NCBI GenBank assembly: GCA_917880885.1
Contig: OU862913.1
Location: 22,515,286 to 22,579,285, forward strand
Length of the DNA stretch: 64,000 nt
DNA from: Limnephilus marmoratus
Taxonomy: Eukaryota; Arthropoda; Insecta; Trichoptera; Limnephilidae
Reading direction: 5' to 3'
Part shown: positions 6,520 through 64,000 of the stretch, one piece after another
Layout: each line of letters begins with the position of its first letter
Numbering within the stretch: position 1 is the stretch's first letter
Made by a program: the position numbers and the translations under genes
The notes under the pieces: model-generated
What the model saw: the letters and a program-made list of their open reading frames with translations, nothing else
Told to the model about the DNA's origin: nothing
Databases searched by the model: none

Positions 6520-8775
6520 TCACGCCGTTTCCCCGCAGGGGTAGGCAGAGAGGACGGACCGCCAAACAACTCGGTCTTGGCACACACTCTTTGCCTCACT
6601 CACATTCATACATCGTCTCATACATTCTCTTCTATTGTTCTGACTTTTGACATGGCCCGATTCAAGTATTTGATTCACTTGATCGTGCCACGTCTTCCTC
6701 GGGCGTCCCCGACTTCTTCTACCATTCACATTCGCGTCGTATATTCTTCTTACACTACTTTCTTCGTTCATTCGTTCTACATGCCCAAACCATCTGAGGG
6801 TCCCTTTCTTAATCTTACTCATTATGCTTATATCAGCCTTACATTCTTTGCGGATATCCACATTTCTCACACGATCATACATTGTTTTACCACACTTACG
6901 TCTCAGGGATCTCATTTCAACAGCATTCAGCTTACTTTCATCCTTCCTCTGCCAGTTCCATGCCTCACTGCCATACATCAGGGTAGGTACCAGGACTCCA
7001 TTGTGGACTGCTAGCTTTGCTTCTTTTGACAGTTTTTTATTAGCGCCAACGGCATTCAGTCCACCATTAATGGAGTTACCGGCATTCACCCTTCTTTCAA
7101 TATCTCTATCAGCCTTCCCATCTCTCGTAAACACACTACCCAGATACACAAACTCATCCACCTGCTCCAAGTATTCATCATTCACAACTATGTTGCATAC
7201 TGTTTTCGTACTCTCTCTTTCAAACACCATGACTTTAGACTTACTTACATTCATCATTAACTCATTCTTCATACATACTTCATTCATCCTTGATACGAGA
7301 GACTGTAGATCTTCCATAGTATTAGAAATCAGCACCGCATCATCAGCATACAACAGGCAACATACTTTCAGATTACCCAATTTCGCGCCCAATCCCACCT
7401 CTTTCAATTCTTGCATACAATTATCCATGTATAGATTGAATAACCATGGTGACATTACGCAGCCTTGCTTGACACCTTTTGTGATGTCAAACCACCCCGT
7501 AAAACCACCGTTCACCCTAACACACGCAACGCTTCCCTCGTACAGAGATGCAATTGCCTGTATGAGATTTGTATTCACTCCATACTTGGACAACACCTTC
7601 CATAACTTTTTCCTGTCGACTCGGTCGTATGCTTTTTGTAGATCTACAAAAGCGCAGAAAAGTTTCTGGTTTTTCGCCAGAAACTTCTCAGTGAGCATAC
7701 GCAAGGAGAAAATCTGGTCCATGCATCCCCTTCCACTCATAAAGGCACCTTGCACATCCCATATTTTATCCTTTGTTTCCATTCTTACCCTTTCAATCAA
7801 TATTCTTCCGTACAGCTTGCCGACTGAACTTAGCAGGCTTATAGCCCTATGATTCCCACAATCCATACGTGACCCTTTACCTTTGTATAACGGCATGATT
7901 ACAGCCCTTCTCCAATCTAATGGCGTGTAACCCTCCTCTAAACACTGGTTAAAAAGTTTGCACAACCATGTGAGAATAATATGACTATCTCCTTTAAAGT
8001 ATTCGGCAGCAATATTGTCGAAACCAACAGCCTTACCATTCTTCATGCATTTTATCGATTTTTTTATTTCATCCACGCTGATTTTGGTAACATTCACTCC
8101 GTCATCGTTCATACCCGATTCACCATTGGCCTCACTATCATCCGGGTTGCTTTCGAAAACCTCCTCAAAATATTTCATCCATCTCTCTTTTATTTCTTCC
8201 TCATTCGTCAACATTCTTCCATCTTTCGATTTTATGACTTTCAGGCTTCCGTTCTCTGAACCACTCCGGGGCCTTTTGACCTCCTTCCAAAACAGTTTAA
8301 TGTTTTCTTGGAAGTGTTTTGTCATTTTTATTCCCTCTTCCTCTTCCAGGCGTTTCTTTCGTTCTTTCACTCCAACACTTACTCTTTTCTTACATCCCTT
8401 ATAAACTTCTTTCGCTCTATCTCTCTCTTCGCTAGAAGCAGTGCCAGCCGCTATCAGATGTAACCATGCTTTCTTCTTCTCTGAGACCAGTGCTTTGATC
8501 TCGTCATCCCACCATGCGTCACCTTTCTTCCTACCTTGCGTACTTATTCCACATACATCCCTAGCAGATTCACAAAGACTCACCTTTATGTGGTTCCATG
8601 TTTCATCAATGCTTAGACCATCCATTTCCTTCTCATTCAATCTTATCTCCGCACAATTCTCATACTCACTTCTGACATTAATGTTTTGCAGTTTTTCTAC
8701 TTTGACTCTTGTTGGAGTTGATATCGTTTTCACTTTAGAGCGCCAGCCGCGAAAGAGGTTTACTCTCGACACCAC
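6520..8775 (-). CDS. LINE reverse transcriptase (RTE-like), after in-frame stop
   Basis: A 751-residue frame. It contains a reverse-transcriptase core with the finger motif AVIMPLYKGKG, an AFVDLQKAYDRVDR palm motif, GVKQGCVMSPWLFNLYMD, the catalytic YADD (about residue 476, bases 7339-7350) and the YLGS thumb motif. The C-terminal part has LRWFGHVERM and RGRPRKTWHDQV, typical of RTE-like elements. It reads in the same frame as the upstream endonuclease and is separated from it by a single TAG (8797-8799), so ancestrally one polyprotein. Its function would be target-primed reverse transcription of the element RNA. The frame is otherwise open, implying a fairly recent insertion. Long frames on the opposite strand here are shadows. 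Confidence 0.9.
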   Translation of the reverse strand: MVSRVNLFRGWRSKVKTISTPTRVKVEKLQNINVRSEYENCAEIRLNEKEMDGLSIDETWNHIKVSLCESARDVCGISTQGRKKGDAWWDDEIKALVSEKKKAWLHLIAAGTASSEERDRAKEVYKGCKKRVSVGVKERKKRLEEEEGIKMTKHFQENIKLFWKEVKRPRSGSENGSLKVIKSKDGRMLTNEEEIKERWMKYFEEVFESNPDDSEANGESGMNDDGVNVTKISVDEIKKSIKCMKNGKAVGFDNIAAEYFKGDSHIILTWLCKLFNQCLEEGYTPLDWRRAVIMPLYKGKGSRMDCGNHRAISLLSSVGKLYGRILIERVRMETKDKIWDVQGAFMSGRGCMDQIFSLRMLTEKFLAKNQKLFCAFVDLQKAYDRVDRKKLWKVLSKYGVNTNLIQAIASLYEGSVACVRVNGGFTGWFDITKGVKQGCVMSPWLFNLYMDNCMQELKEVGLGAKLGNLKVCCLLYADDAVLISNTMEDLQSLVSRMNEVCMKNELMMNVSKSKVMVFERESTKTVCNIVVNDEYLEQVDEFVYLGSVFTRDGKADRDIERRVNAGNSINGGLNAVGANKKLSKEAKLAVHNGVLVPTLMYGSEAWNWQRKDESKLNAVEMRSLRRKCGKTMYDRVRNVDIRKECKADISIMSKIKKGTLRWFGHVERMNEESSVRRIYDANVNGRRSRGRPRKTWHDQVNQILESGHVKSQNNRRECMRRCMNVSEAKSVCQDRVVWRSVLSAYPCGETA

Positions 8776-8796
8776 CAGAAAGTGGTCAGTTTCAAC

Positions 8797-9471
8797 CTAC
8801 GCCCCCCTGAACACTCTTGTGTCTTCGGTAACGGCTCTCAACCTAGAGTCAATCACCACAAAGTCAATTATTGATCTTTCATTTCCTCTTTCCCACGTAT
8901 ATTGGTGGACACATTTGTGATCGAAAAAAGTATTCGATACAAACAGGTTCCACTCTAAACATACTTCAAGTATTCTATTCCCATTATCATTCGTTCTTTC
9001 ATCCCCGAACTTACCTAAAGCTGAATCAAATCCGTCACGTCTAATTCCCACCCACCCATTCAAATCGCCCGCCATTATGATCCTTTCATTCTCATTTTTT
9101 AATCTCATTACATCGTTCACACCAGTCCAAAAATCATCTTTCACTTCGTCGCTTTCAGAATTAACAGGAGCATAGCAAATAACCAGAAACACCCTTGTCA
9201 AACCAATTTTGAATCGGATCCACATTATTCTCGGACTTACACATTCATATTGCGACATGCATTCAATCATTCTGGGAGACAGTAACGCTGCAACACCCTG
9301 ACAAGCCCTCTCCGTATCTGGTCTCCCAGACCAGATGACAAGTTTATCGTTGTGCTGCATCGTACCGCTCTCTTTTTTCATACTCTCTGTCACACAAAGT
9401 ACGTCCAAACATTTACTATCCATTGTTTCGCATAATTCATTCATCTTTCTTTCCATCCCTCCTCTGATATT
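8797..9471 (-). CDS. LINE endonuclease domain (APE type), ends at TAG
   Basis: Encodes an apurinic-endonuclease-like domain. Reading starts with IGTWNIRGG just inside the element boundary, without an ATG; the first ATG is at 9456. Visible motifs are CVTES (metal-binding Glu), IMAGDLNGWVG and SIIDFVVID. The catalytic SDH-type motif appears as TDHFLVV just beyond the TAG at 8797-8799. That stop therefore cuts the domain from its last catalytic His. The enzyme nicks target DNA to prime reverse transcription. As it stands the element cannot make the full protein without readthrough. Confidence 0.85.
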   Translation of the reverse strand, partial: NIRGGMERKMNELCETMDSKCLDVLCVTESMKKESGTMQHNDKLVIWSGRPDTERACQGVAALLSPRMIECMSQYECVSPRIMWIRFKIGLTRVFLVICYAPVNSESDEVKDDFWTGVNDVMRLKNENERIIMAGDLNGWVGIRRDGFDSALGKFGDERTNDNGNRILEVCLEWNLFVSNTFFDHKCVHQYTWERGNERSIIDFVVIDSRLRAVTEDTRVFRGA

Positions 9472-9486
9472 CCACGTACCAATTCG

Positions 9487-9608
9487 ACAAATTCATAATT
9501 TTTTATTTAAATTATCAGAAATAATGTTTTAAGAACCAAACCAGCGGCCGATAATTCAAATTTCGTCGAAAGATTATATCGCGAACATACCCTTACAGCA
9601 TATGTAAG
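9487..9608. repeat. composite repeat copy B, right part
   Basis: Continues copy B after the LINE, matching copy A from about 4668. It includes the TTAA-element end AACCAGCGGCCGATAATTC. Similarity to copy A goes on into the Harbinger-like element. Confidence 0.7.
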
Positions 9609-13985: not shown

Positions 13986-14214
13986 CATTTAGTGTGTAAG
14001 AAAGAGAAAAATGAAATAAAAAAAACAATAATTGAAGTATGCGAATTTTTTTTCGTATTACTGCTTTATAGCAAACAAAAATTATGATAATTAACAAACA
14101 TATTACCTACTTCTTGGAACAAAAATTTGTCAATAATCAACACTTACAATATAATAGAAGGCCTTCGTTAATTGAGTATTTTAACATTCTTAAGAGGGCA
14201 TTACCAGAGAAAGC
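13986..14214 (+). repeat. inverted counterpart of the window's first 215 bases
   Basis: Inverted match to 60-215, including CTTCTTGGAACAAAAATTTG. It belongs to the same hAT-like family as the segment at 1-371. Confidence 0.5.
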
Positions 14215-14910
14215 CGGAAATACGTCATTTTCAAAAAAGTTTTTAGACGTATTGACTCTTTTCCACAAAAAATTATAAATGGATTTCGAAAGATTGTTCT
14301 TTTATCTAGCATAGTTATGTAATAAATTTTTAGATTTTTTTTTAATTTTTAGTATAATAAGGTTATTCCATAGGTCGTTGGCAGATTTGTTAAATTTTCA
14401 AAAAAGTTTTTGTATTATACCACACCCATATCAAATAATGTAATCATGCAGTAAAATAAATCAATACATTATCTAGCAAAGTTATGTATTAGAATTTTAA
14501 TTTTAGTTTCAATAAAATCATTAAAAAATATGTACGTACATGTGTTTCTTGACGAAAATTGGTCCATTTGTGTATTTATTTGCGCACTTACAAACTAATA
14601 TATTTCAGATTTTTTTAACATTCTTATTAAATTTAGACATTATTGAAAAATGATAAATACTTATAATCAAAAAATAACTACAAAAAGTACACTATTTTAA
14701 TAGTTTTATCATCACGCCTTTCAGCATTTTTGGATGAAGGTATAAATTAAAGCTAATTTGGATTGAAATAAATTCGATATTGAGTTATAATTTAAAAAAG
14801 CTGGTACGGAGAATAATCAATCTTTCTCATTGTAACCGCCCTGCACGATCGGAAGAACAACTTCCGACGAAATGTGGATTTTCGTCCGCTGGCTGGTTAA
14901 ACGCTCTTAA
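14215..14910 (+). mobile_element. TTAA-type inverted-repeat element, right fragment
   Basis: Similar along its length to 54607-55292 of the complete element at 53501-55288. Shared blocks include AGCTGGTACGGAGAATAAT and GCTGGCTGGTTAA, ending at TTAA (14907-14910). The left half is missing. No coding capacity. Confidence 0.65.
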
Positions 14911-15345
14911 GACTAAATTTAACATTTATTGAGATCTTTTAATTGCAGTTAGTAATGTATAATTACCTAATAAATAACTGGTCATTAGTAATCAGTCACA
15001 ACAAAGAAATAAAAGAAACGGAAACACCGTTCTTATGGTAAATTAATCAGTCTCAATAAAGGTTACTATAATTAGTTTGTACAACAATTAAGCACTTTAA
15101 AAATCAGTTCTGAAATAAAAATAAATAAATATTATTATTAGATTAATAATTAACTTTAGTATTCGTAATTAAAAAGTCTAATATTGTACGCTAAAAAAGC
15201 AGTTTTACTACATTTTCACGGTTTCTGTGCGGGCGAAGGTTCAGCAGATTTTCTGCCGAAACCGAACCTTCGGTCGGTCACTTAATATCGTCATTTAAAA
15301 CAAAATAAATAAAATAGCACATATCCGTATTGGATATTTAATAGT
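14911..15345. other. AT-rich DNA with an hAT-like terminus
   Basis: Mostly featureless. Bases 15218-15285 carry a GAAACCGAACCTTCGGTCGGTCAC stretch like that ending at 371, so it probably marks the end of an hAT-like element. No gene. Confidence 0.4.
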
Positions 15346-15840: not shown

Positions 15841-16048
15841 CTGGAACTTGCGCACTTGTATTAGGTATACATTATTTGTAATGAAATAAAATGGGATTTG
15901 AACACACGACCTCGGGATTCGTAGTTGACAGCCTTACCCCTCGAATATGAAGAAGGTCAATACTTGGACATGTACCTGCGCGGAATAATAATATTCTATA
16001 CAATGACACTGTTGGACAATTTATAAAATAGCTTGTTCTTTGTTGCAG

Positions 16049-19000
16049 ATTTCTCACAGGACTACACCTCCCATCTCAACATGCAGGTCGACCAAGGCTT
16101 GATTTACAGTTCTACTGATTTGAAGAAAGTCCTCAAAGATTTCGTTCCTATTGAAGATAACAAAAGTAAATTGACCTTGGAGGCATACCCCTCTCTGAAA
16201 GTCTTAGCGGCCTTCGCCAAACTGGCGTACAATGATTGTCTGGAGGAATTGGTCGTTCCTGAAGGATGGAAGCTGCTCACCACGGCACAGAACGATTCTA
16301 ACGGGTACTTCGGGTGTGCCTTTTGGAGCCCTACAGAGCAGCAAATCGTCGTAGCCCACCGAGGGACGGAACTAAAGAATTTAGGAGCAGTCTGGATTGA
16401 CGGAAAAGGCGTTGTCTGTAACAAATACACCGCACACATGAGCTCCGCTGTGTCGTTTACAGATGACGTCAAGAAGGTTATTCAAGAAACTAATGAACAA
16501 TACGGGAGTCGATTGGTTCTATCCATAACAGGTCACTCCTTGGGTGCCTGGTTGGCCAGCGTCACTACCATGACCGTCAAATACCTTAAACAGCATGGAA
16601 GTGGATTCATCATCTGCCCCGGTGAAGGTATCCATGCGCATACTGTGGCCTTGGACAGCCCTGGTGCTAAGGATATGCTGGATAAGATACGCAACGACTA
16701 TGATTCACGTTACGACCGTTCCTTGAGTATCAAATACTTGGACATCACAACCTTCTTCGCTGCAGTTAATCCGGTGAACAGCACAAGAAAACACGTGGGA
16801 GGTTTATATCAATTGCACATCTCCCGTGACTCCAAGAAATCCAATTTGAAGTACAATTTAGACACCCACAGCTTAGAGATCTTTATTAATGCTTTTGAGA
16901 AAGAGACTAAAATGTATGCAGTACAGGATTGGCCTCAAGGGGTTGCTGAGTGCAAACATCAATGCATCCTAGAAAGTCAGTGTAATTCTCACATCTTACA
17001 ACCAGATGCAGAAAAAGTAGTTGAACCAGTTGGGCTAGAGATATTCTTAGATAAAGAGAGTACAGAATCCGTTAGAATTGCTGGCAGTACCACAGATCGA
17101 CGAAAAAGTGAACTTGACTTGAAAAAACAGGGAGAAACCCCAACATTACACTACGAATCCAAATTATCGAAGGGAAACACCTGTCATCTGGGGGTCTTCT
17201 CCGCAGAAGAGCAAAATTTTTTACAAAATTGGAGCTTTTTTCAAAGTAATGCTATATTTAAATTGGCCGAAATCGATAAGTTAGTATTTCGGCAAAATCT
17301 TACAAAAATAGACCTCCCTGAATTTCAGATGAATACTAGAAGAATCACTTGTGAAACAAAGGAACAGTTGGTAACATTGATCAGACTAACCAAACAACTG
17401 ATGCGCTGGTTACCTGAAGAGATTATGGAAGCTCTGGCTAAACAGAAGGAGAGTATAAAGTCAGCCCCCTTATACAGGGCTGGCCAGGCATACCTCAGCC
17501 ACTTACCCAAAATCATGGACTGCGAAGATACCCTGGAGATAGAGTCATTTTTAAAATCAAATCAACGTGTTCTACAATTTCAAACACGCTATGGATATTT
17601 CGAAACTGCCAGAGTGTGTAATATATTGTCTAGGATACGAAACATTGATTTGGAAAGAATGTATTTGAATAAAAACTGTAAAACCGTTTTAGGTTGGAAC
17701 CAAATGGCTGATACGGCGAAGGATGTAGATTTCGAAGGATTAAACCGGACCAATGTTACCAATAATAATCTGCTCATTATTAATTTTGGATCAACATCAA
17801 ATAATTTAAATTCAAATGATCGTGATTTATTGAAAATAATATTGAATAATTTATTACTGTTCAACCACAAGAAGCTTGTAATTATTCAATCATATCCAGT
17901 TGATGCAAATATTTTTTCGGAATGCAATCTTCCCTTTGAAATAAAGGTTTTGAAAAAATTTGAATTAAATGACCTAACTCTTTCATCTAGAACTGAGATA
18001 TTTGCAAGAGACGCAATTATAATAGGCGAAGAAACGCTAAGCCTTGCTGTTTTACTGGGCGATGACTGTTATTCAAATGATGAAACGATTCGAAACAGAA
18101 TTAATCGAATAATTTCTCCAATTTTGAGAGAGCTCACGACGGACCACCAGTTTCGGGCCAAAATACAAAATACTCTTCTTAAAATTTGTGAATCAGATGC
18201 TTTCTATTCAAAAGTAAATACACAAGTGAGCAAAGCGAAGCTCATGTCACTGCTGGAGAGGAGTGGGGCCGATGGATCACTGCTGGTTATCATTAGCGAT
18301 CCAGAGCGGCTCAGCCGGGACTACTGGGGGGAGGTGGCGGAGGCTGTGCGGGAGAGGATTTTAACCAGTAGGATAGAAGGACGGGAACTCTTTTTGAAAA
18401 AGTGTTGCGAGGAACCAGATAAACTAATCTACTGGCTGAAATTATCGGCGCAATGCCTAACACTGAGCGAGGTTTATAATAGCGGCGTTTATCTTCCTAG
18501 AATGTTCCACTGTTGCATAATTATTAAATCCATAGACGAACTCGTCCGTTACACGGGATCTCATGATTTATTTATATTCGAAAATGCAGATGATAAGAAT
18601 TCGTTTATTACTCCATTTAATTTATCCATGGAAGGTAAGGATTTGTTTGTCTCAAGCGAACACTTCATTACGCATATTGCTTCTCAGGAATCAAGTATGG
18701 AAAACAAGATGAAAGATGAAACGTTAAACAAACATTACTTTCGAAATCTAGAAATTGAGGGAATCCCGCGTTTGGTCTGGCAATACTCCCACGGCTCTCT
18801 GGATGGCCTGCGCCCCTTCATTACCAGGGACTACAGCAACGCCATTGCGGAAGGTGACTTTTGCAACATGAAAAAGAGGGTGACCATCATTGCTGATGAT
18901 CCTGGAGTGGGAAAGACCACCAGCCTGACGCGTATGTCTGCGCTTATCCGAAACTCTTGGGTGTTGAGAATTGACAGCAAGCATTTGGCTATTGCAGAAC

Positions 19001-21159
19001 TGCCTCAAATATTAGACCTGCAATCGGTTGTCAAATGTTTGATACACTCGTCAGGTTTATCTACCGATGATGAATTGGCGCATAATCTACTTAAACATTG
19101 CATGAAATCGACGAGCTCGATACAGGTTTATATTTTAGTCGACGCATTCGATGAGATAACTCAGGAAAAAAACAAGAAAAAAGTTATTGATCTCCTGATG
19201 TATTTAAAAAATTCCACTACTTGTAATACGATCGTCACAACACGGGTGTATGCTAAAAAAGAGCTCGAAAATTATTTGTTTGAATTTTCCACAGAAATTA
19301 AAAGCATGACAGAAGAAGAACAAGATGATTTTTTGGTGAATTCCTGGCTTCCGCATCTAGCCTTGGAGCTTCCAGAACACGGAGAGCCGGAGAAGCGGAG
19401 GCTGTGCAAGTTTTCCCGAGAGCTGCGAAAGGAGATGGTGGGAGTGCTGGGGGTAGACGTTGCGCGCTTTATGGGCATTCCACTTCAGATCCGTATGTTG
19501 TCCGAGGTGTTCCTTCGGCAGGCCATTAAGTTTGTCCAGTCCCATGAAGAAGTGAACGAACACTTAAAAGTAAAAAATTTGTTTGACTTGTACACACGGT
19601 TCATCAATGTTAAGAATGCAATACATACGGAGCAGAAAACTACGATTAATATGCTACCAACTACCAATCGGGATACGGTGTGCAAAGGCACCAAGGACAA
19701 TCATTATTTCCTGGCGTTCCAAACCATCGATGCACCTTTTACCGAAAAATATTTCAAAAAGAAAATACTATCCAACGAAGTTTTGGTGGATCTTAGCAGA
19801 GCAGGTCTTATAAAAGTTAATATTGATGGAACTTTTAATTTCATACATCTCACATTCGCGGAATACTTTTGCGCTGACTTCTGCTTACAATGGCTCAGAC
19901 GCGAAGAGCAAATCGAAGAAAATAATAATCTTATTAATATATTTCGTGAATTTTTACTCTGGCCATGCTATAAAATAATAAGGAAATTCATGGAGGATCA
20001 GCTTGATATATCACTAATACGCAGTTTACAAAAAGTACCAATAATGTACCGACGTTCGTTTGATTTTACCTATCAAGTGGTTTTTCATCAGCACGACAAA
20101 ACTCCATTACATATAGCAGCCGAAGAACGGAATAGGAACACCCTTGCATTTCTTTTAAGTAGCCCGGACAACAGGAAAACTAAGAGAGACTACATCAACT
20201 TCATATCGGCCAAAGACAGTGCTGGAAAGACCGCTCTGAACATCGCATTGGAGAATGGCTGTCTCGAAATTGTAATCGAAATAACAAAAATCGCAGAAAG
20301 CTGCTCGCACGAGGCGTCGCTAGAAATTATGCTCTCTGCTTTCTTAGGCCAGAGAGGTGACAGAGATGATGAATTGTTTAGAGAATATTATTTAAAAACA
20401 CACCTTTCATCTAATATACACAAAGTTTTAAGAAGAACTGATGAGTTAAGAAAACAAATCACACCATTAGTTGCAGCAGTTAGAGACGATGACTTTTGGA
20501 AAGTTATAGTGTTATTTCATGCTACGGAATCCGAAATTGAAAGGCAATACCTGTACATTGCGATTGACAAGCAGGGTGACTCACTTTACCTTCTCTCAAA
20601 AAGTGAGCAAAAATGGCAAAATTGGATATGGTATATTATAATATCAATGTCCGGAGTCCTTGCTTTTCAAAGTTGTATGAATACGTATAAACCTCGACTG
20701 ATTCCTTGGCCCCCTGTTATGGCGGGAGTGCGCAGCGACAACACAAATTATGCAAATCATAAGATATATCCAGATAAATTCAGCCAGTTTGTCGAAACGT
20801 TCTATGGACCTATATTTTATATCTTTTACGATTTCGCTAAGGCTAATCGTATGTGTACATTAATTATGTTTCATTTATTAGGTTGGTTAGTTAATTCATT
20901 TACTCCCGCTTTTGTTTTAGTTTATATGAGTTGTATATATATAATAGTCGTGTCTATAGATGTGTGGATAAACTCTTATAGTCCTGATCCGACTGTTTTA
21001 TCAGATGTAACTCCTGCATGGGATTGGAGGGATAGTTTAGATAGCATTTATTTGTTACTTTTTTTTATACTTTTTTTAATGTGGTACACTTTTCTTTTAC
21101 ATTTCTTTTGGTCGAGTATTTTTGGAATTTTCCAAATGATGAAAGAAATTATAATATAG
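16049..21159 (+). CDS. lipase-NACHT-ankyrin membrane protein, main exon (gene 1)
   Basis: The exon follows acceptor TTGTTCTTTGTTGCAG (ends 16048) and stays open for about 1700 codons to TAG at 21157. The first in-frame ATG is at 16081, but homology to gene 2 shows a phase-1 exon continuing an upstream exon not found here. Domains in order: class-3-lipase-like alpha/beta hydrolase with nucleophile elbow GHSLG (16531-16545); a long helical linker; NACHT NTPase with Walker A DPGVGKTT (18898-18921), Walker B YILVDAFDEI (19129-19158) and FIHLTFAEYF (19840-19869); two ankyrin-like repeats (KTPLHIAAE near 20098, GKTALNIALE near 20224); and about four hydrophobic segments (20620-21130). This is the layout of an NLR/STAND sensor with a putative lipase effector, likely membrane bound. 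Immune role is inference. The usual lipase acid is not obvious: the region reads NPVNSTRKHVG. Confidence 0.85.
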
Positions 21160-21900: not shown

Positions 21901-22444
21901 ATTTTCAAACCACTCGCACCACCTGTAGTAAATTTTTTAAACAAATTTCGTAACGCCATTGTATGTATATCTATATAAAACTTTCCTGGCGTGCGTGCAA
22001 CAAATCACCAAAGTTTCTTCACAATCTGATAAACGGTATAACAGCGCATAAAATATGAAAAAAACTAATATAAATTTGTATATATTTTAAATGAAATACA
22101 CAATTTTCAAATCACTCTCGCACCAATGTAGTAAATTTTTTATACAAATTTCATAACGCTAGAGCTTACAATTATATATAAAAACGTTGTTTCAAAATTT
22201 GGTGATTTGTTGTACCAACAAAAAAACAAATATTAATTTTTATATATAAAATAATAAAAATATACATATAAATGTTCCTTTATACCTACCATAACGTGTT
22301 ATACCCATTTTTGCTTTTTTGTTAGATATCTAAACTTCTAAAACTGTTTTTTGGTACTTGTATACACTAAATCGTATAAACTGTGAAAATGGTCGTTGGT
22401 AATGAATAAAATAAAATAAAAATAATAAATTTTAAAAATAATCA
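21901..22444. other. AT-rich DNA, two related ~170-bp segments
   Basis: Bases 21890-22020 and 22085-22215 resemble each other (GAAATACAC, then TTTTCAAACCACTCGCACC and AACTTTCCTGGCGTG-like versus AAAAACGTTG). This suggests a local duplication. No gene. Confidence 0.4.
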
Positions 22445-23720
22445 TTTTGTTTTTGAGGAGTTTTACTTTCCATGTTAAAAAAATAATAATTTTGATTTTG
22501 AAGAGGTTTACTTTCTATGTTAAAAATTATTATTTTATTTTTGAAGAGTTTTACTTTCCATGTTAAAAAATAATAATTTGGATTTTGAAGAGTTTTACTT
22601 TCTATGTTAAAAAAAAAAATATTTTGAAGAGATTTACTTTCTATGTAAAAAATAATAATTTTATTTTTGAAGAGTTTTACTTTCTATGTCAAATAAAGTT
22701 TAATTTTGTTTTAGATGAGTTTACTTCCCATGTTAAGAAAACAATAATTTTGTTTTTGAAAAACAATTTTTTCGTGTTAAAAGAATTATAAGAGTATTAC
22801 TTTCCATGTTGAAAAAACAATAATTTTGTTTTTGAAGAGTTTTACTTTCCATTTTGAAAAAAATAATAATTTTGTTTTTGAAGAGTATTACTTTCCACGT
22901 TGAAAAAATAATAATTTCGTCTTTGAAGAGTATTACTTTCCACGTTGAAAAAATAATAATTTTGTCTTTGAAGAGTATTACTTTCCACGTTGAAAAAATA
23001 ATAATTTTGTCTTTGAAGAGTATTACTTTCCACGTTGAAAAAATAATAATTTTGTTTTTGAAGAGTTTTACTTTCCATTTTGAAAAAAATAATAATTTTG
23101 TTTTTGAAGAGTATTACTTTCCACGTTGAAAAAATAATAATTTCGTCTTTGAAGAGTATTACTTTCCACGTTGAAAAAATAATAATTTTGTCTTTGAAGA
23201 GTATTACTTTCCACGTTGAAAAAATAATAATTTTGTCTTTGAAGAGTATTACTTTCCACGTTGAAAAAATAATAATTTTGTTTTTGAAGAGTTTTACTTT
23301 CCATTTTGAAAAAAATAATAATTTTGTCTTTGAAGAGTATTACTTTCCACGTTGAAAAAATAATAATTTTGTCTTTGAAGAGTATTACTTTCCACGTTGA
23401 AAAAATAATAATTTTGTCTTTGAAGAGTATTACTTTCCACGTTGAAAAAATAATAATTTTGTCTTTGAAGAGTATTACTTTCCACGTTGAAAAAATAATA
23501 ATTTTGTTTTTGAAGAGTATTACTTTCCACGTTGAAAAAATAATAATTTTGTTTTTGAAGAGTTTTACTTTCCATTTTGAAAAAATAATTATTTTGTTTT
23601 GAAGTGTTTTACTTTCCACGTTAAAAACATAATAATATTGTTTTTGAAGAGTTTTACTTTCTATGTAAAAAAAAATGTTTTGGAAGAGTTTTATTTTCAA
23701 TATTAAAAAACAATAATTTT
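22445..23720. repeat. 45-bp minisatellite with 226-bp higher-order repeat
   Basis: The array has units of 45 bp such as TTTGAAGAGTATTACTTTCC plus AATAATAATTTTGTC, spaced exactly 45 bp apart at 22919, 22964 and 23009. The central part also has higher-order units of 226 bp (five 45-mers plus one base), with starts near 22854, 23080 and 23306. Because 45 is a multiple of three, frames stay open on both strands and look like proteins (repeating SITFHVEKIIILSLK). They are artefacts. The outer units (22445-22800, 23580-23720) are degenerate, as expected of an array that expands in the middle. Confidence 0.93.
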
Positions 23721-23858
23721 TTTAGAACAGTAATCATGAAGGAAAATATGTTAATTAAATTATATACAACTACTCATGATGAAGAATAGTAGGTACCATG
23801 CTAGCATTGATTATAATTTTACTATTGAGGTATGTTATTATAGCCCTTTTGTTATTAT

Positions 23859-24734
23859 TAGAGACACTGATTCATCGCATTAACGATATATTCGCGAATT
23901 AAAGCGATAAATGGTGTTTTTAGCGATAAAAACGTTAAAACGCGAAATGGCAGCGATTTTTACAACAAAACTTTCAAAAATTGAGTGATGGTGTTTTCCC
24001 TGCCAAAACCTTAAAGGCTGTGCAGGAGGTAAAGAACCGGGTTGTCTTAACCCAAATAAAAACTCAAATAAAAGAGAGTTGTCAGAAGAGTTCTGTGAAA
24101 CTGGCATCTCATGTGCTGAACCGTCAAGACAACAGCACTAATCTATTTCTTGAGTACGCAGGTAAAATGTTCAATCCTGCAATTGTAGGTCAGAATGTCC
24201 AGCGATCAGACGCTATTCTTTTAGCAAGTAAAAGTAGGCTTGCTCCAACGTTTAAATCTATTGATGACAGTAAATTCCTAGAAGGTAACAGGTATTTTCA
24301 AAGACAGCTTGTAGAGCAAGTGAGGGATGGAGTCACTGTAGACATACATAATTCAGCTACTCTTAGCTGTAAAAATTGTTCACAGAGAATTTGTTGAGGC
24401 AGCTCTGATGACTGCGTGGGCCCCTGTGAATAGTGTTGACGCAGAAAGATTTTTTAGTTGCTATAATCTTGAATTGATAGATCGTAGAACGAACATGACA
24501 CACTCTACTGTAGAAACATGTGCCATGTTGAGTTTCAACCAATAATAAAATAAACATGTTTCAAGTGATTTTGCCAATTTAATTGTTTTTCCCCTCTTGC
24601 CGACTCCCATTCCTTGACGTTATCCTATTTAGCTATAAACGCTATGAAAACGCAAAATTAAAGCTAAAAAAGCTATTTTTTCAATAATTAATGCTACATT
24701 TCTTAAAAATTAAAGCTATGAATCAGTGTCTCTA
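23859..24734 (+). mobile_element. hAT-superfamily element, 876 bp
   Basis: Perfect 8-bp target duplication GTTATTAT (23851-23858 and 24735-24742). The inverted termini are TAGAGACACTGATTCAT on both ends. Inside is an internally deleted transposase fragment with the C-terminal dimerisation motif. The superfamily call rests on 8-bp TSD, terminus and protein remnant together. Confidence 0.92.
23981..24543 (+). pseudogene. hAT transposase fragment
   Basis: A 138-codon frame (23981-24397) starting near LSDGVFPAKTLKAVQEVKNR shifts by one frame into a second piece (about 24393-24543). That piece has SVDAERFFSCYNLE, DRRTNM and CAMLSFNQ, the hAT C-terminal dimerisation region, where ERxFS is the hallmark. 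The central catalytic part is deleted, so this is a non-autonomous derivative. Confidence 0.75.
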
Positions 24735-53500: not shown

Positions 53501-55288
53501 GAGCCATTAACCAGCGGCCGAGAATTTAAATTTCGTCGAACGATGATCTTGCGGTCGTGCCTTTGCAACTGTGCAGGGCGGTTCCGATGAGAAAGATTAG
53601 TTATTTTCCATACCAGCATTTTAAAATAATAACTCAATATCGATTTTATTTCATTCACAATTTGCTTTGACCTACATTCAAAAGCGCATAAATTCGTGAT
53701 GATAAAACTGTTAAAATTATGTGATTATATGATTTGAAATGTCGTATAATACAATGTTTTGTCTGAAAATTTAACAAATCTGCCAACGACCTACGGTAAA
53801 ACCTTATTGTACTAAAAATAAACATATTTTCTAAAATTTAAAATATAGCTTCAATAGAAAGAAGAACAGTATTTCTATATCAATTTATATATTTTTTCTG
53901 GAAAAGGGCAATACGTCTTAAATTTGACTTAGAAATGACGTATTTCCGATTTTGTCTGGTTATTCATTCTTCTAGAATTTTTTTTCTTCGATTTTCGATA
54001 ATTTAGATATTCGAGAATATCTCATAAAAAGGATTTTTCAAAATTCGAATTATTTTAAAAGTTAAAGCAAATTTAGTTCCACCGGTTTTACGAAATCTAA
54101 ATAGAGCAAAACTTTATCCTCGTTTTTCTCAAAACTACTTTTTTCGAAACGTTTGTCACGAAATCTCAAGTTCTAATTGACCGATTTTTTTGAAATTTTC
54201 AGGATTTTTTAAAATATATCGTTCTTTGGTGGGAACCAACAAAAAAATAATTTTTACTATTTTAAAAACTCGGAAAGTTAAAAAATAACTTTTAGCAGCC
54301 GCGATTTTTCTCATTTTTCTTGGTTCCTACCATTGAGGTATATAATATCAATGATTCCTACCATAATGACATTTGTATTGATAAAGAATCTTTTTATTTT
54401 TCAAATTACTAGCTTAATTTTGCAAATTACTTAGCTCCTTTTTCCCCCTCTACTTCAACAGCGATTTTTTTTTTTATGAATTCTTAAAATATATGTAAAT
54501 AAATATAGGTACTATAAAAATATATGGCTATAATATTAATGTTCTTTTTAACGACCATAAAAAAACAACCGAAGTTTGGGCTTCTAGACTAGAATACCCA
54601 GACACAACGGGAAATACGTCATTTTTAAATCAAATTTTAGACGTATTGACTCTTTTCCACAAAAAATTATAAATTGATTTCGAAAGACTTTTCTTTTATC
54701 TAGTAAAGCTATGTTTTAATTTTTGAGAAAATATGTTTATTTTTAGTACAATAAGGTTTTACCGTAGGTCGTTGACAGATTGTTAAATTTTCAAACAAAA
54801 TTTTGTATTACACAACAAACATTTGAAATCATATAATCATGCAGTAAAATAAGTTATCTGGGAAAGCTATGTTTTAGAATTTTATTTTAATAAAATCATT
54901 TAAAAACGATCCGCGCACGTGTTTTTTTGATGAAAATACTTCAGTTTGTCTATTTATTTACGGTCTTACAAACTAATGTATTTCAGATTTTTTTTTACAT
55001 TTTTATTTTGTTTAGACATTATTGAAAAATTATAAATACCTACTTATGATAAAAAATAATAAGAATAATTACATAATTTTAATAGTTTTATCAGCACGCC
55101 TTTCGGCATTTTTGAATGTAGGTATACATTAAAGCAAAATTTTAATGAAATAAAATCGATATTGAGTTATTATTTTAAAAAGCTGGTACGGAGAATAATT
55201 CATCTTTCTCACTGGAACCGCCCTGTACGATCGTAAGAACATCTTTCGACGAAATATGAATTCTCGGCCGCTGGTTGGTTAATGGCCC
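53501..55288. mobile_element. TTAA-flanked inverted-repeat element, 1.8 kb
   Basis: TTAA lies on both sides (53497-53500, 55289-55292). The ends are GAGCCATTAACC and the inverse of GGGCCATTAACC, then AGCGGCCGAGAATT. Inverted similarity continues for well over 100 bp (GCACAGTTGC... to the CCGCCCTG and AGCTGGTACGGAG blocks). Target and termini suggest a piggyBac-type non-autonomous element. No coding frame. A right-hand fragment is at 14215 and end pieces are in the composite repeats at 4715 and 9535. Confidence 0.8.
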
Positions 55289-55606
55289 TTAAAGACAAGC
55301 TTTAATGCTAATATAGTTTGTATAACTTATACTTATGTTTAATGTATAATTTTTATTTTAATTTTCTGTAAAATATAATTTTTTATAATGTTTTTGATAC
55401 AATAAATAAATAGAATAGAATTGAAAATCTCGTAAAAATTTCTTTCGGCTTTTGATTCGCAATCCGACGGACGGGGGATCGAATCCCGGCGTTTGCAAAT
55501 ACATTTTATTTGATTAATTTGTTCTATTTCGCAATTAATTCATTTAAAATAATATGTAGTATATTTGCGGCAAGTTCCAGAGTGGTGGAAGATACTCTCT
55601 TTGATG

Positions 55607-60610: not shown

Positions 60611-63600
60611 ATATCTCCAGCGGCTTCTGTCTCAACATAAAGGTCGATCAAGAATTGATTTACAGCTCTACTGATTTGGAGGAAATCCTCAAATCATTCA
60701 CACCCATTGAAAATAATATCAAACTGACTTTGGAGCCGTATCCTTCTCCAAAAGTATTAGCTGCTTTTGCTAAACTGGCGTACGGTGATTGTCTGGGGAA
60801 ATTGGACCTACCAGTAGGATGGAAGCTGCTCGCTACGGCACAGAATAAATCCTCGACTAATGGATACTTCGGAAGTGCATTTTGGAACCCTACAGAACAG
60901 CAAGTTGTCTTAGCCCACCGAGGGACGAAACTTGATAATTTAGGAGCACTCTGGATTGACGGAAAAGGCATTTACTGTAACAAATATACCAGGCACATGA
61001 GTTCAGCTGTGACGTTTACGGATTACATCAAGAAGGTTATTCAAGAAACTAATAAACGACACGGGAGTCGATTCGTTCTATCCATAACAGGGCACTCCCT
61101 GGGAGGCTGGTTGGCCAGCGTCACCACTATGACCGTCAAATACCTTAAGCGATATGAAAATGGATTCATCATCTGCCCCATTGAAGGTATCCATGCGCAC
61201 ACTGTGACTTTTGACAGCCCGGGTGTCAAGAAAATGCTTGATAAGATACTCGATGATTACGATTTACGTTATGATTGTACCATGTACATCAAGGACTTGA
61301 ACATTACAACCTTCTTCGTCGCTGCAAATATGGTGAATTCCACAGGACATCAAGTGGGAGATGTATATCAGATATGTACTAAACGTGTTCCCAAAGTCTC
61401 TAGGGGGCCTAAGTTCAAGACCAATATAGATACACATAAGATAGACATTTTAATCAAAGCTTTAGAAGATGGGAAGGGTTTACGTAAAGTACGGGACTGG
61501 CCCGTGATAAAAAAGGAGCGCATAGATTACCACAAACAAATGAAATCCTCCAACTCTTATACATTGGATCATCAAAATCGGCAGAACACAGAGCAAGGTG
61601 AAATAAATGCTGGCAGTAGAACTCAGCACTCACCAAAAATACCATTATTACGATATAAAACAGAACCATGGCTGGGAGACACCTGTGACCTAGGGGTATT
61701 TTCCACAGAAGAGCTAAACTTTTTACAAAATTGGAGCTTTTTTCAATGCAATGCAATATTTAAAATGGCAGAAATCGATGAGTTCGTAAATCTGCATAAT
61801 CTTACAAAAATAGACATCCCTGAATTTCAGATAAATACTAGAATTACTTGTAAAACAAAGGAACAGCTGGAAACCTTAATCAGACTAACCAAACAACTGA
61901 TGCGCTGGTTTTCTGACAAGATTATGGAAGCTCTGGATAAACAGAACGAGAGTATAAAGTCAGCCCCCTTATACAGGGCTGGCCAGGCATACCTCAGCCA
62001 CTTATCCAAAATCATGGACTGCGAAGATACCCTGGGGATAGAGTCATTTTTAAAATCAAATCAACGTGTTCTACAATTTCAAACACGCTATGGATATTTC
62101 GAAACTGCCAGAGTGTGTAATATATTGTCTAGGATACGAAACATTGATTTGGATACAATGTATTTGAATCAAAACTGTAAAACCGTTTTAGGTTGGAACC
62201 AAATGGCTGATACGGCGAAGGATGTAGATTTCGAAGGATTAAACCGGACCAATGTTACCAATAATAATCTGCTCATTATTAATTTTGAATCGACATCAAA
62301 TAACTTAAATTCAAACGATCGTCGTCTATTGAAAATAATATTGAATAATTTATTACAGTTCAGCCACAAGAAGCTTGTAATTATTCAATCACATCCAGTT
62401 GATGCAAACATTTTTTCGGAATGCAAACTTCCCTTTGAAACAAAGGTTTTGGAAAAATTTGAATTAAATGACCTAACTCTTTCATCTAGAACTGAGATAT
62501 TTGCAAGAGACGCAATTATAATAGGCGAAGAAACGCTAAGCCTTGCTGTTTTACTGGGCGATGACTGTTATTCAAATGATGAAACGATTCGAAACAGAAT
62601 TAATCGAATAATTTCTCCAATTTTGAGAGAGCTCACGACGGATCACCAGTTTCAGGCCAAAATACAAAATACTCTTCTTAAAATTTGTGAATCAGATGCT
62701 TTGTATTCAAAAGTAAACACGCAAGTCAGCAAAGCGAAGCTCATGTCACTGCTGGAGAGGAGTGGGGCCGATGGACCACTGCTGGTCGTCATTAGCGATC
62801 CAGAAGAGCGGCTCAGCCGGGACTACTGGGGGGAGATGGCGGAGGCAGTGCAGGAGAGGATTTTAACCAGTAGGATAGATGGACGGGAACTCTTTCAGAA
62901 AAAGTGTTGCGAGAAACCAGATAAACTAATCTACTGGCTGAAATTATCGGCGGAAGGCCTCACACTGAGCGAGGTTTATAATAGCGGCGTTTATCTTCCT
63001 AGAATGTTCCACTGTTGCATAATTATTAAATCCATAGACGAACTCGTCCGTTACACGGGATCTCATGATTTATTTATATTCGAAAATGCAGATGATAAGA
63101 ATTCGTTTATAACTCCATTTAATTTATCCATGGAAGCTAAGGATTTGTTTGTATCAAGCGAACACTTCATTACGCATATTGCTTCTCAGGAATCAAGTAT
63201 GGAAAACAAGATGAAAGATGAAAAGTTAAACAAACATTACTTTCGAAATCTGGAAATTGAGGGAATCCCGCGTATGGTCTGGCAATACTCCCACGGCTCT
63301 CTGGATGGCCTGCGCCGCTTAATTACCAGGGACTACAGCAACGCCATTGCGGAAGGTGACTTTTGCAACTTGAAAAAGAGGGTGACCGTTATTGCTGATG
63401 ACCCTGGAGTGGGAAAGACCACCAGCCTGACGCGCATGTCTGAGTTTATCCGAGACTCTTGGGTGTTGAGAATCAACCTAAATCATTTGGCTATTGCAGA
63501 ACTGCCCCAAATACTAGACCTGCCATCGGTTGTCAAATGTTTGATACACTCGTCAGGTTTATCTACCGATGATGGATTGGCGCGTAATCTACTTCAACAT

Positions 63601-64000
63601 TGCATGAAATCGATGAGCTCGATACAGGTTTATGTATTAGTCGACGCATTCGACGAGATAACTCAGGAAAAAAACAAGAAAAAAGTTATTGATCTCATGA
63701 TGTATTTAAAAAATTCCACTACTTGTAATTCAATCGTCACAACACGGGTGTATGCGCAAAAAGATCTCGAGAATTATTTGGTTGAATTTTCCACAGAAAT
63801 TAAAAGCATGACAGAAGATGAACAAGATGATTATTTGGTGAATTCCTGGCTTCCGCATCTAGCCTTGGAGTTCCCAGAATACGGAGAGCCGGAGAAGCGG
63901 AGGCTGCACAAGTTTTCCCGAGAGCTGCGAAAGGAGATGGTGGGAGTGCTGGGGGTAGACGTTGCGCGCTTTATGGGCATTCCACTTCAGATCCGTATGT
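60611..64000 (+). CDS. lipase-NACHT protein, main exon (gene 2), runs off window
   Basis: Follows acceptor CTGTGTTTCAG (ends 60610) in phase 1. I translated it from ISSGFCLNIKVDQEL past Walker B and compared the rest with gene 1; no stop or frameshift was found. Nucleophile elbow GHSLGGW is at 61090-61110, Walker A DPGVGKTT at 63400-63423, Walker B YVLVDAFDEI at 63631-63660. The ankyrin and membrane parts expected from gene 1 lie beyond 64000. The lipase part is clearly diverged from gene 1 (for instance AANMVNSTGHQVG for AVNPVNSTRKHVG), the linker at 61440-61690 very much so, while from about 61830 onward it is nearly identical. Codon-sized differences such as an extra Glu near 62803 keep frame, which supports selection for function. 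Confidence 0.87.

What the first reader, a model, noticed from the sequence alone, without database searches (positions are those of the whole stretch)
16049..21159. Insect lipase-NACHT-ankyrin-membrane protein, an NLR-like architecture
The sequence shows a GHSLG hydrolase elbow, NACHT Walker A and B, the FIHLTFAEYF motif, ankyrin-like repeats and several membrane segments in one exon. NACHT proteins with alpha/beta-hydrolase or lipase effectors are known in fungi and bacteria as defence sensors, whereas classical NLRs are absent from well-studied insects such as Drosophila. A membrane-anchored lipase effector under NACHT control would be an unusual defence or cell-death module. Its immune role is inference.
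Basis: partly seen in the sequence, partly recalled or inferred. Interest (0 to 1): 0.88.

Follow-up and report, generated by a model that had tools for sequence, protein, structure and literature searches.

The report
Arthropod lipase-armed NLR-like gene family
A likely arthropod genome carries at least 128 related copies of a gene that, in nearly every copy examined closely, joins a predicted fat-cutting enzyme to an immune-type molecular switch, and in this branch of the family the tail changes unusually fast, so these proteins are likely infection sensors that would damage the cell's own membranes when triggered.

Summary

It is not a lone oddity: the genome holds at least 128 related loci. 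All 20 fetched NACHT loci keep lipase sequence, 18 inside one long frame. Relatives with the same domain order occur in a spider, a mite and unnamed sources. The lipase is shared with Rickettsia, Legionellales, Amoebophilaceae and Wolbachia; the Wolbachia copy nests among arthropods (AU p=0.003). NACHT-ankyrin kin in which no lipase was seen occur in beetles and a mosquito.

Lipase and NACHT are under purifying selection in most comparisons; the membrane C-terminus shows dN/dS 2.2-10 in three recent pairs. Best reading: an NLR-like switch with a lipase effector and a diversifying sensor. Immune function, lipase activity and membrane insertion are inferred. 'Insect' was not confirmed. Arthropod NACHT homologues were reported before (PMC5062602); I found no report of the lipase form.

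The parts
14204..14922 (.). conserved upstream block, candidate first exon and promoter region
   Evidence: 81% identical to 54598-55305, upstream of the second copy; exon or promoter role inferred
16018..16048 (+). 3' splice acceptor region (TTTGTTGCAG)
   Evidence: nucleotide homology between copies A and B starts at 16018; acceptor-like sequence also in copy C and, as far as fetched, D
16049..21159 (+). probable terminal coding exon; ATG at 16081, stop codon ends at 21159
16171..16959 (+). class-3 lipase domain, residues 31-293
16531..16545 (+). GHSLG nucleophile elbow; S153
   Evidence: S in 58 of 58 aligned domains that cover the site (59 rows)
16654..16656 (+). D192, candidate catalytic acid after strand beta6 (LDSPG here, mostly FDSPG in others)
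   Evidence: D in 57 and E in 2 of 59 rows; catalytic role inferred
16867..16869 (+). H263, candidate catalytic histidine
   Evidence: H in 57 of 58 rows that cover it, Y in one Rickettsia row; role inferred
17455..18168 (+). AAA+/STAND-like core, residues 459-696, without a GK[ST] P-loop
18763..20100 (+). NACHT NTPase with following helical domains, residues 895-1340
18895..18918 (+). Walker A, DDPGVGKT
   Evidence: sequence; G944, K945 and T946 invariant in A2 (12 rows) and A4 (21 rows)
19129..19155 (+). Walker B, YILVDAFDE
   Evidence: sequence; D1021, D1024 and E1025 invariant in A2
19840..19869 (+). FIHLTFAEYF motif
   Evidence: F1254, H1256, A1260, E1261 and Y1262 invariant in A2
20095..20277 (+). 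ankyrin stretch (about two repeats)
   Evidence: Pfam Ank_2 6.7e-7
20611..21156 (+). fast-evolving C-terminal region, residues 1511-1692
   Evidence: dN/dS 10, 2.2 and 2.7 in the three recent pairs; 0.85-1.03 against copy D
20887..20976 (+). predicted membrane segment, residues 1603-1632
   Evidence: hydropathy 2.32
21034..21114 (+). predicted membrane segment, residues 1652-1678
   Evidence: hydropathy 2.30
60640..64000 (+). second copy (B), running off the window end
   Evidence: 84% identical over residues 2-1692, 1,690-aa frame without stops; its residue matching the first ATG reads ATA

Best explanation
The locus encodes one copy of a large gene family that joins a predicted class-3 lipase domain, a NACHT domain and a short ankyrin stretch to a predicted membrane-spanning C-terminus, and it likely works as an NLR-like intracellular sensor whose NACHT switch would release the lipase against the cell's own membranes. 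Shown from sequence: the domain order in one exon, at least 128 related loci in the genome, conserved Ser and His of the lipase, conserved Walker A and B in the aligned own copies, purifying selection on the lipase and NACHT parts in most comparisons, and excess amino-acid change in the C-terminus of recent copies. Predicted: lipase fold, AAA+-like middle domain, NACHT fold, membrane segments. Inferred: an autoinhibited ADP-bound monomer; sensing by the variable C-terminus (ankyrin arrays in other copies, a membrane hairpin in this subfamily); NACHT-driven oligomerisation that clusters and opens the lipase; phospholipid or acylglycerol hydrolysis leading to cell death or to killing of an intracellular microbe.
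For: Lipase fold. S153 58/58, D192 57 D + 2 E of 59, H263 57/58. NACHT. Family size: 100 scored NACHT places of 178 candidates, median open frame 1,771 aa, 89 of 100 at least 1,400 aa; 28 loci at other places, the window gene included (33 matching rows; 28 of 474 candidates scored), 27 of the 28 reaching into the lipase. Lipase plus NACHT linkage in arthropods and unnamed sources: P0006 spider, P0008 and P0009 of one mite, P0007, P0011, P0040, P0041. NLR-like evolution: lipase, middle and NACHT dN/dS 0.31-0.44 in the three comparisons with copy D (p<=1.2e-5), C-terminus 10, 2.2 and 2.7 in A-B, A-C and B-C (p 0.0027, 0.0032, 0.0003). dS differs by domain within a pair (A-B: lipase 0.55, NACHT 0.053, C-terminus 0.009), as gene conversion between clustered genes would give. 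Bacterial lipase-STAND proteins show the same effector-switch-repeat order.
Against: No activity, expression or localisation data. The NACHT/C-terminal model is poor (mean pLDDT 55), and its best Z (8.7) is only a little above the level the tool warns about. The usual beta7 acid position appears to hold Asn (N230, 59 of 59 rows), so the triad needs D192 instead, or the enzyme is dead; no coordinates were available to check geometry. Against the most distant copy (D) the C-terminus is saturated at dN/dS 0.85-1.03, which also fits relaxed constraint. NACHT dN/dS in A-B, A-C and B-C (0.72, 1.28, 0.65) does not differ significantly from 1. The Fisher tests are pairwise, not independent, and uncorrected among 30 in that panel. 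In the other branch of the family no region exceeds 1 in 11 pairs. Copy B lacks the ATG and some copies carry stops, so part of the family may be decaying.
Confidence: 0.6

Rival explanations
1. Pseudo-lipase scaffold: the lipase fold is catalytically dead and signals by assembly, as the plant immune protein EDS1 does (recalled), so the protein is an immune receptor but not an enzyme.
Against: Ser, His and a possible beta6 Asp are kept in nearly all of 59 domains from bacteria and arthropods; lipases, esterases and phospholipases score above EDS1.
Confidence: 0.15
2. Selfish or conflict genes: the family descends from symbiont effectors and spreads as killer or anti-killer elements (gene drive, cytoplasmic incompatibility or its suppression) and is not an immune receptor.
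For: The lipase is shared with Rickettsia, Amoebophilaceae and Wolbachia; copies are clustered and mosaic.
Against: Lipase-NACHT-ankyrin proteins occur in a spider, a mite and unnamed sources, with their lipases in one clade, which suggests long retention; the lipase and NACHT parts are under purifying selection in most comparisons.
Confidence: 0.12
3. Lipid-metabolic or transport enzyme: a membrane-bound lipase regulated by a NACHT domain, with no role in defence.
For: Lipase fold and predicted membrane segments.
Against: A family of at least 128 loci, a fast-changing C-terminus in one branch, and NACHT-ankyrin relatives in which no lipase was seen are unlike a metabolic enzyme.
Confidence: 0.06
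4. The membrane C-terminus is a relaxed, non-functional remainder of a lost ankyrin array; only the ankyrin-bearing copies work.
For: A relative with 52.6% identity (L050) continues into a long ankyrin array; dN/dS against copy D is about 1; other copies carry stops there.
Against: Four frames stay open to the end with hydrophobic ends; dN/dS exceeds 1 in all three recent pairs, which relaxation alone would not give.
Confidence: 0.07

Closest known systems
Arthropod NACHT proteins and the phage WO NACHT-ankyrin protein (PMC5062602, passages read)
   Same: NACHT followed by ankyrin repeats in the WO protein; NACHT homologues in arthropods with a relative in an intracellular symbiont
   Different: 'Lipase' occurs 0 times in that paper's main text; the WO protein carries a latrotoxin C-terminal domain. 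Its sequence was not compared here.
Fungal NLRs with sesB-like or patatin lipase effectors (PMC4986451, passages read)
   Same: N-terminal lipase, central nucleotide-binding domain, C-terminal ankyrin, WD40 or TPR repeats
   Different: Here Pfam names the lipase Lipase_3, with relatives in bacteria; there is an additional AAA+-like middle domain; predicted membrane segments in one subfamily
Bacterial lipase-STAND-repeat proteins of Rickettsia, Legionellales and Amoebophilaceae
   Same: Same lipase subfamily, then a STAND NTPase (NB-ARC matched in 4 of 6 long ORFs scanned, NACHT in P0023), then TPR, HEAT or ankyrin repeats
   Different: NB-ARC rather than NACHT in most, TPR in 5 of 6; the Rickettsiales ORF L035 (764 aa) shows no STAND match; the own NACHT profile did not find their NACHTs
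Wolbachia protein P0010 (Wolbachia endosymbiont of Andrena nigroaenea)
   Same: Lipase and linker match this protein over residues 4-446 at 34%; sister to the spider lipase
   Different: OTU-ankyrin-lipase-STAND (GLRGVGKT)-ankyrin order
Avs4 and animal NLRPs
   Same: STAND fold; Avs4 is the first-ranked PDB match by Foldseek for the C-terminal model and the best VIA match for the middle domain
   Different: No PADLOC family matched P0001; no LRR family among the Pfam matches
EDS1 (plant)
   Different: No NACHT; EDS1 is non-catalytic (recalled)

Membership tests
NLR in the broad sense (effector - NACHT/NB-ARC - superstructure repeats) | central STAND NTPase of NACHT type with Walker A and B | tested here: met
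   Pfam NACHT 3e-5 but 2.4 bits under cut-off for this copy, over cut-off in the 100 listed other places; motifs invariant in 12 aligned rows; fold matches
NLR in the broad sense | N-terminal effector domain | tested here: met
   lipase domain before NACHT; that it acts as an effector is inferred
NLR in the broad sense | C-terminal superstructure repeats | tested here: met
   Ank_2 here, about two repeats; long ankyrin arrays in relatives
NLR in the broad sense | ligand-induced oligomerisation and immune output | not testable with these tools
   needs biochemistry and infection assays
Animal NLR in the strict sense (NACHT-LRR) | C-terminal leucine-rich repeats | tested here: not met
   no LRR family among 10 Pfam matches at E<=1
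Class-3 lipase (Lipase_3) | alpha/beta-hydrolase fold with GxSxG | tested here: met
Class-3 lipase (Lipase_3) | Ser-Asp-His triad with the acid after beta7 | tested here: inconclusive
   S153 and H263 conserved, but the assumed beta7 position is Asn230 in 59 of 59; D192 after beta6 is the candidate (position judged by eye, no coordinates to check)
Bacterial Avs defence systems | match to a curated defence model | tested here: not met
   PADLOC: 0 families at E<=1 for P0001
Arthropod NACHT-ankyrin family | nearest NACHT relatives are arthropod NACHT-ankyrin proteins | tested here: met
   of 17 proteins found with the NACHT region of a family member (L010), 16 carry ankyrin matches; 9 of the 17 are named as arthropods, 1 (P0052) as a rotifer, 7 are unnamed. 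Against this: at profile level the own NACHT also matches lipase-linked bacterial NB-ARC (probability 95) and NACHT (76), though the own NACHT profile found none of the bacterial rows at E<=10
Fungal sesB/patatin NLRs | sesB or patatin type lipase | not tested
   Pfam named Lipase_3; no direct comparison with sesB was run

The most novel reading that the evidence does not exclude
Arthropods hold an unrecognised, Avs-like modular innate immune system: a NACHT-ankyrin chassis onto which effectors are swapped, with a lipase exchanged with Rickettsia- and Wolbachia-type endosymbionts as one of them, amplified in this genome to well over a hundred receptors, with a subfamily that replaced the ankyrin array by a membrane-anchored, positively selected sensor.
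Probability: 0.35. Interest if true: 0.93.

Novelty: new variant of a known kind. Interest (0 to 1): 0.8.

Why it matters
Arthropods are often described as lacking NLRs (PMC4986451 repeats this, passage read). A family of at least 128 lipase-NACHT-ankyrin-type loci with conserved effector and switch, and a diversifying C-terminus in one branch, would be an intracellular receptor repertoire on the scale known from corals or fish (recalled), in a lineage thought to rely on Toll and IMD (recalled). It would link bacterial, fungal and animal STAND immunity through a shared lipase effector, and it would make gene traffic between arthropods and their endosymbionts part of how such receptors arise. 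It is directly testable in cultured cells.

Tried and rejected
Rejected: 'single odd gene'; 'C-terminus is read-through' (0 of 20,000 simulations; open frames in copies B, C and D); 'contaminating bacterial gene' (splice acceptor, copies on several large contigs, P0001 inside the arthropod clade); 'one recent transfer from Rickettsia to this host' (the lipase clade spans spider, mite and millipede; the Rickettsia rows lie outside).

Led nowhere: NCBIfam (best E 0.021) and PADLOC on P0001. hhalign of the middle region against the own NACHT, bacterial NB-ARC and bacterial NACHT profiles gave probabilities 0.2, 2.0 and 0.1, so its AAA+ likeness is fold-level only. I first read the N-termini of P0042, P0051 and P0055 as nuclease-like; Pfam gave no support for P0042 and P0055, and OTU in P0053 is only E 0.12: left as leads. 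PADLOC on five NACHT-ankyrin relatives gave ankyrin-driven matches and weak others. Phages and plasmids: no match for a family lipase and a Rickettsia lipase respectively. The sigma-70 scan is meaningless for an animal gene. Paper searches (listings seen) showed no report of an arthropod lipase-NACHT family; most subscription journals and bioRxiv are not covered. The host's identity stayed open: the insect marker search (PF02949) did not complete.
Full report
WHAT IS THERE. Window 16027-21159 (+) is open from stop to stop for 1,710 codons, with the first ATG at 16081 and 1,692 residues. Nucleotide homology to a second copy in the window begins at 16018, in the acceptor region, and acceptor-like sequence is present in copies B and C and, as far as fetched, D. 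So this is most likely the terminal exon of a gene with at least one upstream exon. A second block, 14204-14922, is 81% identical to 54598-55305 and may hold the first exon. In copy B the residue matching the first Met is Ile (ATA), so in that copy translation must start elsewhere or is impaired.

CATALYTIC RESIDUES. Over 59 lipase domains (own, other arthropods, Wolbachia, Hydra, bacteria) S153 is Ser in all 58 that cover it, D192 is Asp in 57 and Glu in 2, H263 is His in 57 of 58 (Tyr in the Rickettsia row L030), and N230 and N233 are invariant. As I align it by eye, the usual acid position of class-3 lipases, after beta7, is N230; D192, directly after beta6, is therefore the candidate acid, as in pancreatic lipase (recalled). 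No coordinates were available to test this.

A LARGE FAMILY. The NACHT search of the own genome (1.63 Gb, 67 contigs; six frames) scored 100 of 178 candidates; all 100 are listed as matches, 99 of them without stops inside the match, 80 on contig C2 by my count of the table. Their open frames have a median of 1,771 aa, and 89 of 100 are at least 1,400 aa. Of 20 loci fetched from this list, picked by me from the top of the list and to cover contigs, 18 align with P0001 over the lipase and NACHT parts at 27-30% identity (L015 from residue 31); L020 starts at residue 186 and L013 at 629 of P0001. tblastn finds a full-length lipase stretch reaching beyond the long frame in L020, so across a frame break, and a 61-residue remnant in L013. 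The other 80 places were not examined for the lipase. The exact GHSLG string is in 17 of the 20 long frames; L011 has GLSLG, and L013 and L020 do not cover the site. A search with P0001 itself scored 28 of 474 candidates and gave 33 rows, which I merge to 28 loci, the window gene included; 27 of the 28 reach into the lipase, and none is at a place listed. That makes at least 128 loci; counts are lower bounds and include broken copies. The P0001 branch includes membrane-type copies on C8 (84%; 81%; 85% with two stops; two more whose C-terminal match carries stops), one on C28 (75%) and a partial copy with stops; 20 further copies at about 52-56% match only to about residue 1510, in open frames of 1,541-3,320 aa. 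One of these, L050, continues into a long ankyrin array (27 repeat cores counted). None of the 20 ORFs from the other branch has a comparable hydrophobic C-terminus, though a few have single segments elsewhere.

HOW IT EVOLVES. In four membrane-type copies (A window, B window edge, C, D) the lipase, middle and NACHT regions show dN/dS 0.31-0.44 in all comparisons with D (p<=1.2e-5). In recent pairs the C-terminal region shows A-B 1 synonymous to 37 nonsynonymous changes (dN/dS 10, p 0.0027), A-C 16 to 116 (2.2, p 0.0032) and B-C 13 to 119 (2.7, p 0.0003); against D it is saturated at 0.85-1.03. These are 30 uncorrected, non-independent tests. Results that do not help: NACHT in A-B, A-C and B-C (0.72, 1.28, 0.65; none different from 1), the ankyrin stretch (0.62-0.94, none significant at 0.05), the B-C middle region (0.56, p 0.14) and the B-C lipase with only 4 changes. 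dS varies strongly between domains of one pair (A-B 0.55 in the lipase, 0.053 in NACHT, 0.009 in the C-terminus), which points to gene conversion. In 11 pairs of the other branch, chosen as close pairs on the lipase tree, dN/dS is 0.16-0.61 for the lipase, 0.28-0.73 for the middle, 0.19-0.51 for NACHT and 0.39-0.73 for the ankyrin part, which is the highest of the four in 7 of 11 pairs. In that branch I see no positive selection.

RELATIVES. The profile search (36 hits, several of them only ankyrin proteins) and the NACHT-region search (17 hits) found proteins with lipase and NACHT in the same order in the spider Parasteatoda (P0006), the mite Blomia (P0008, P0009) and unnamed contigs (P0007, P0011, P0040, P0041), a shorter one in the millipede Chamberlinius (P0012), and P0002, a 968-residue piece 54% identical to P0001. 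Only P0040, P0009 and P0008 align almost through from lipase to ankyrin; in P0006, P0007, P0011 and P0041 the middle region does not align. Of the 17 proteins only P0040 and P0041 match the lipase profile at E<=10. A scan of one genome per prokaryote species (84 pattern matches, 18 confirmed loci) found the lipase in Rickettsia, another Rickettsiales, Amoebophilaceae and proteobacterial MAGs, plus four weak Bacillota matches. Of six long bacterial ORFs scanned, five carry TPR and the sixth ankyrin, four match NB-ARC and five Lipase_3 at E<=0.001. P0023, named Legionellales, is lipase-NACHT-HEAT.

TREES. Lipase tree of 55 rows (L020, L036 and P0039 left out): all arthropod rows plus Wolbachia P0010 form one clade (100/100); P0010 is sister to the spider (100/98); P0001 and P0002 are sisters (100/100); the Legionellales row and two unnamed bacterial rows come next (85/81), and Rickettsia and the other bacteria lie apart; Hydra P0031 lies among bacteria. 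With P0040 and P0041 added and own copies thinned to P0001 and 10 others (49 rows), forcing arthropods together without Wolbachia is rejected (AU p 0.00306); the group was named after the first tree was seen. So the Wolbachia lipase most likely came from an arthropod, while the wider lipase family is bacterial in spread; a bacterial origin of the arthropod lipase is plausible but the root is unproven. NACHT tree of 43 rows (P0002 left out; P0012 and the bacterial rows were not found by the profile): own copies form one clade (98/90), and rows with and without a seen lipase are interspersed (4 changes), but several long branches and incomplete N-termini (for example P0043, P0050) weaken this as proof of effector swapping. 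The own NACHT profile matches lipase-linked bacterial NB-ARC (probability 95, E 2.7e-8) and NACHT (76) at profile level.

HOW IT LIKELY WORKS. By analogy with NLRs, the NACHT switch would hold the lipase inactive; a trigger seen by the ankyrin array, or in this branch by the membrane C-terminus, would lead to nucleotide exchange, oligomerisation and opening of the lipase against host or microbial membranes. Only the architecture, the conservation and the selection pattern are shown; everything about trigger, activity and outcome is inferred. The EDS1-like, non-catalytic version is the main rival.

PRIOR WORK. PMC5062602 (passages read) reports NACHT homologues throughout arthropods and one in prophage WO; the word lipase does not occur in its main text. 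[quoted passage not shown] Eight paper searches (listings seen) showed no description of this family. I therefore call it a new variant of a known kind. Whether the host is an insect was not established.

Noticed in passing
window 22432-23721: Minisatellite-like array with a unit of about 45 bases and variants, just downstream of the gene (unit length counted by eye).
   Followed up: no
window 6520-9492 (-): Reverse-transcriptase-like open frames of a LINE-type retroelement; the name is recalled, not searched.
   Followed up: no
window 24060-24500 (+): Stretch that reads like the end of an hAT-type transposase (recalled).
   Followed up: no
P0010 (Wolbachia endosymbiont of Andrena nigroaenea, 2,988 aa): OTU-ankyrin-lipase-STAND-ankyrin giant protein whose lipase is sister to a spider lipase: candidate arthropod-to-Wolbachia transfer.
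   Followed up: partly
P0031 (Hydra vulgaris LOC105846304): Lipase_3 plus NACHT/STAND protein whose lipase groups with bacterial ones: separate transfer or contamination.
   Followed up: no
P0042, P0051, P0052, P0053, P0055: NACHT proteins of a mosquito, an unnamed source, a rotifer and two beetles with a shared N-terminal pattern FDD(I/V/L)...Q(V/A/L)K, perhaps a nuclease-like effector; Pfam gives no such assignment for the three tested, P0042, P0053 and P0055.
   Followed up: partly
P0053 (Exocentrus adspersus): NACHT-ankyrin protein with a possible N-terminal OTU protease (Pfam E 0.12, below cut-off).
   Followed up: partly
L033, L037, L042: In Rickettsia tamurae, R. australis and R. rhipicephali the lipase reading is split over several short frames, which looks like gene decay; described only.
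   Followed up: no
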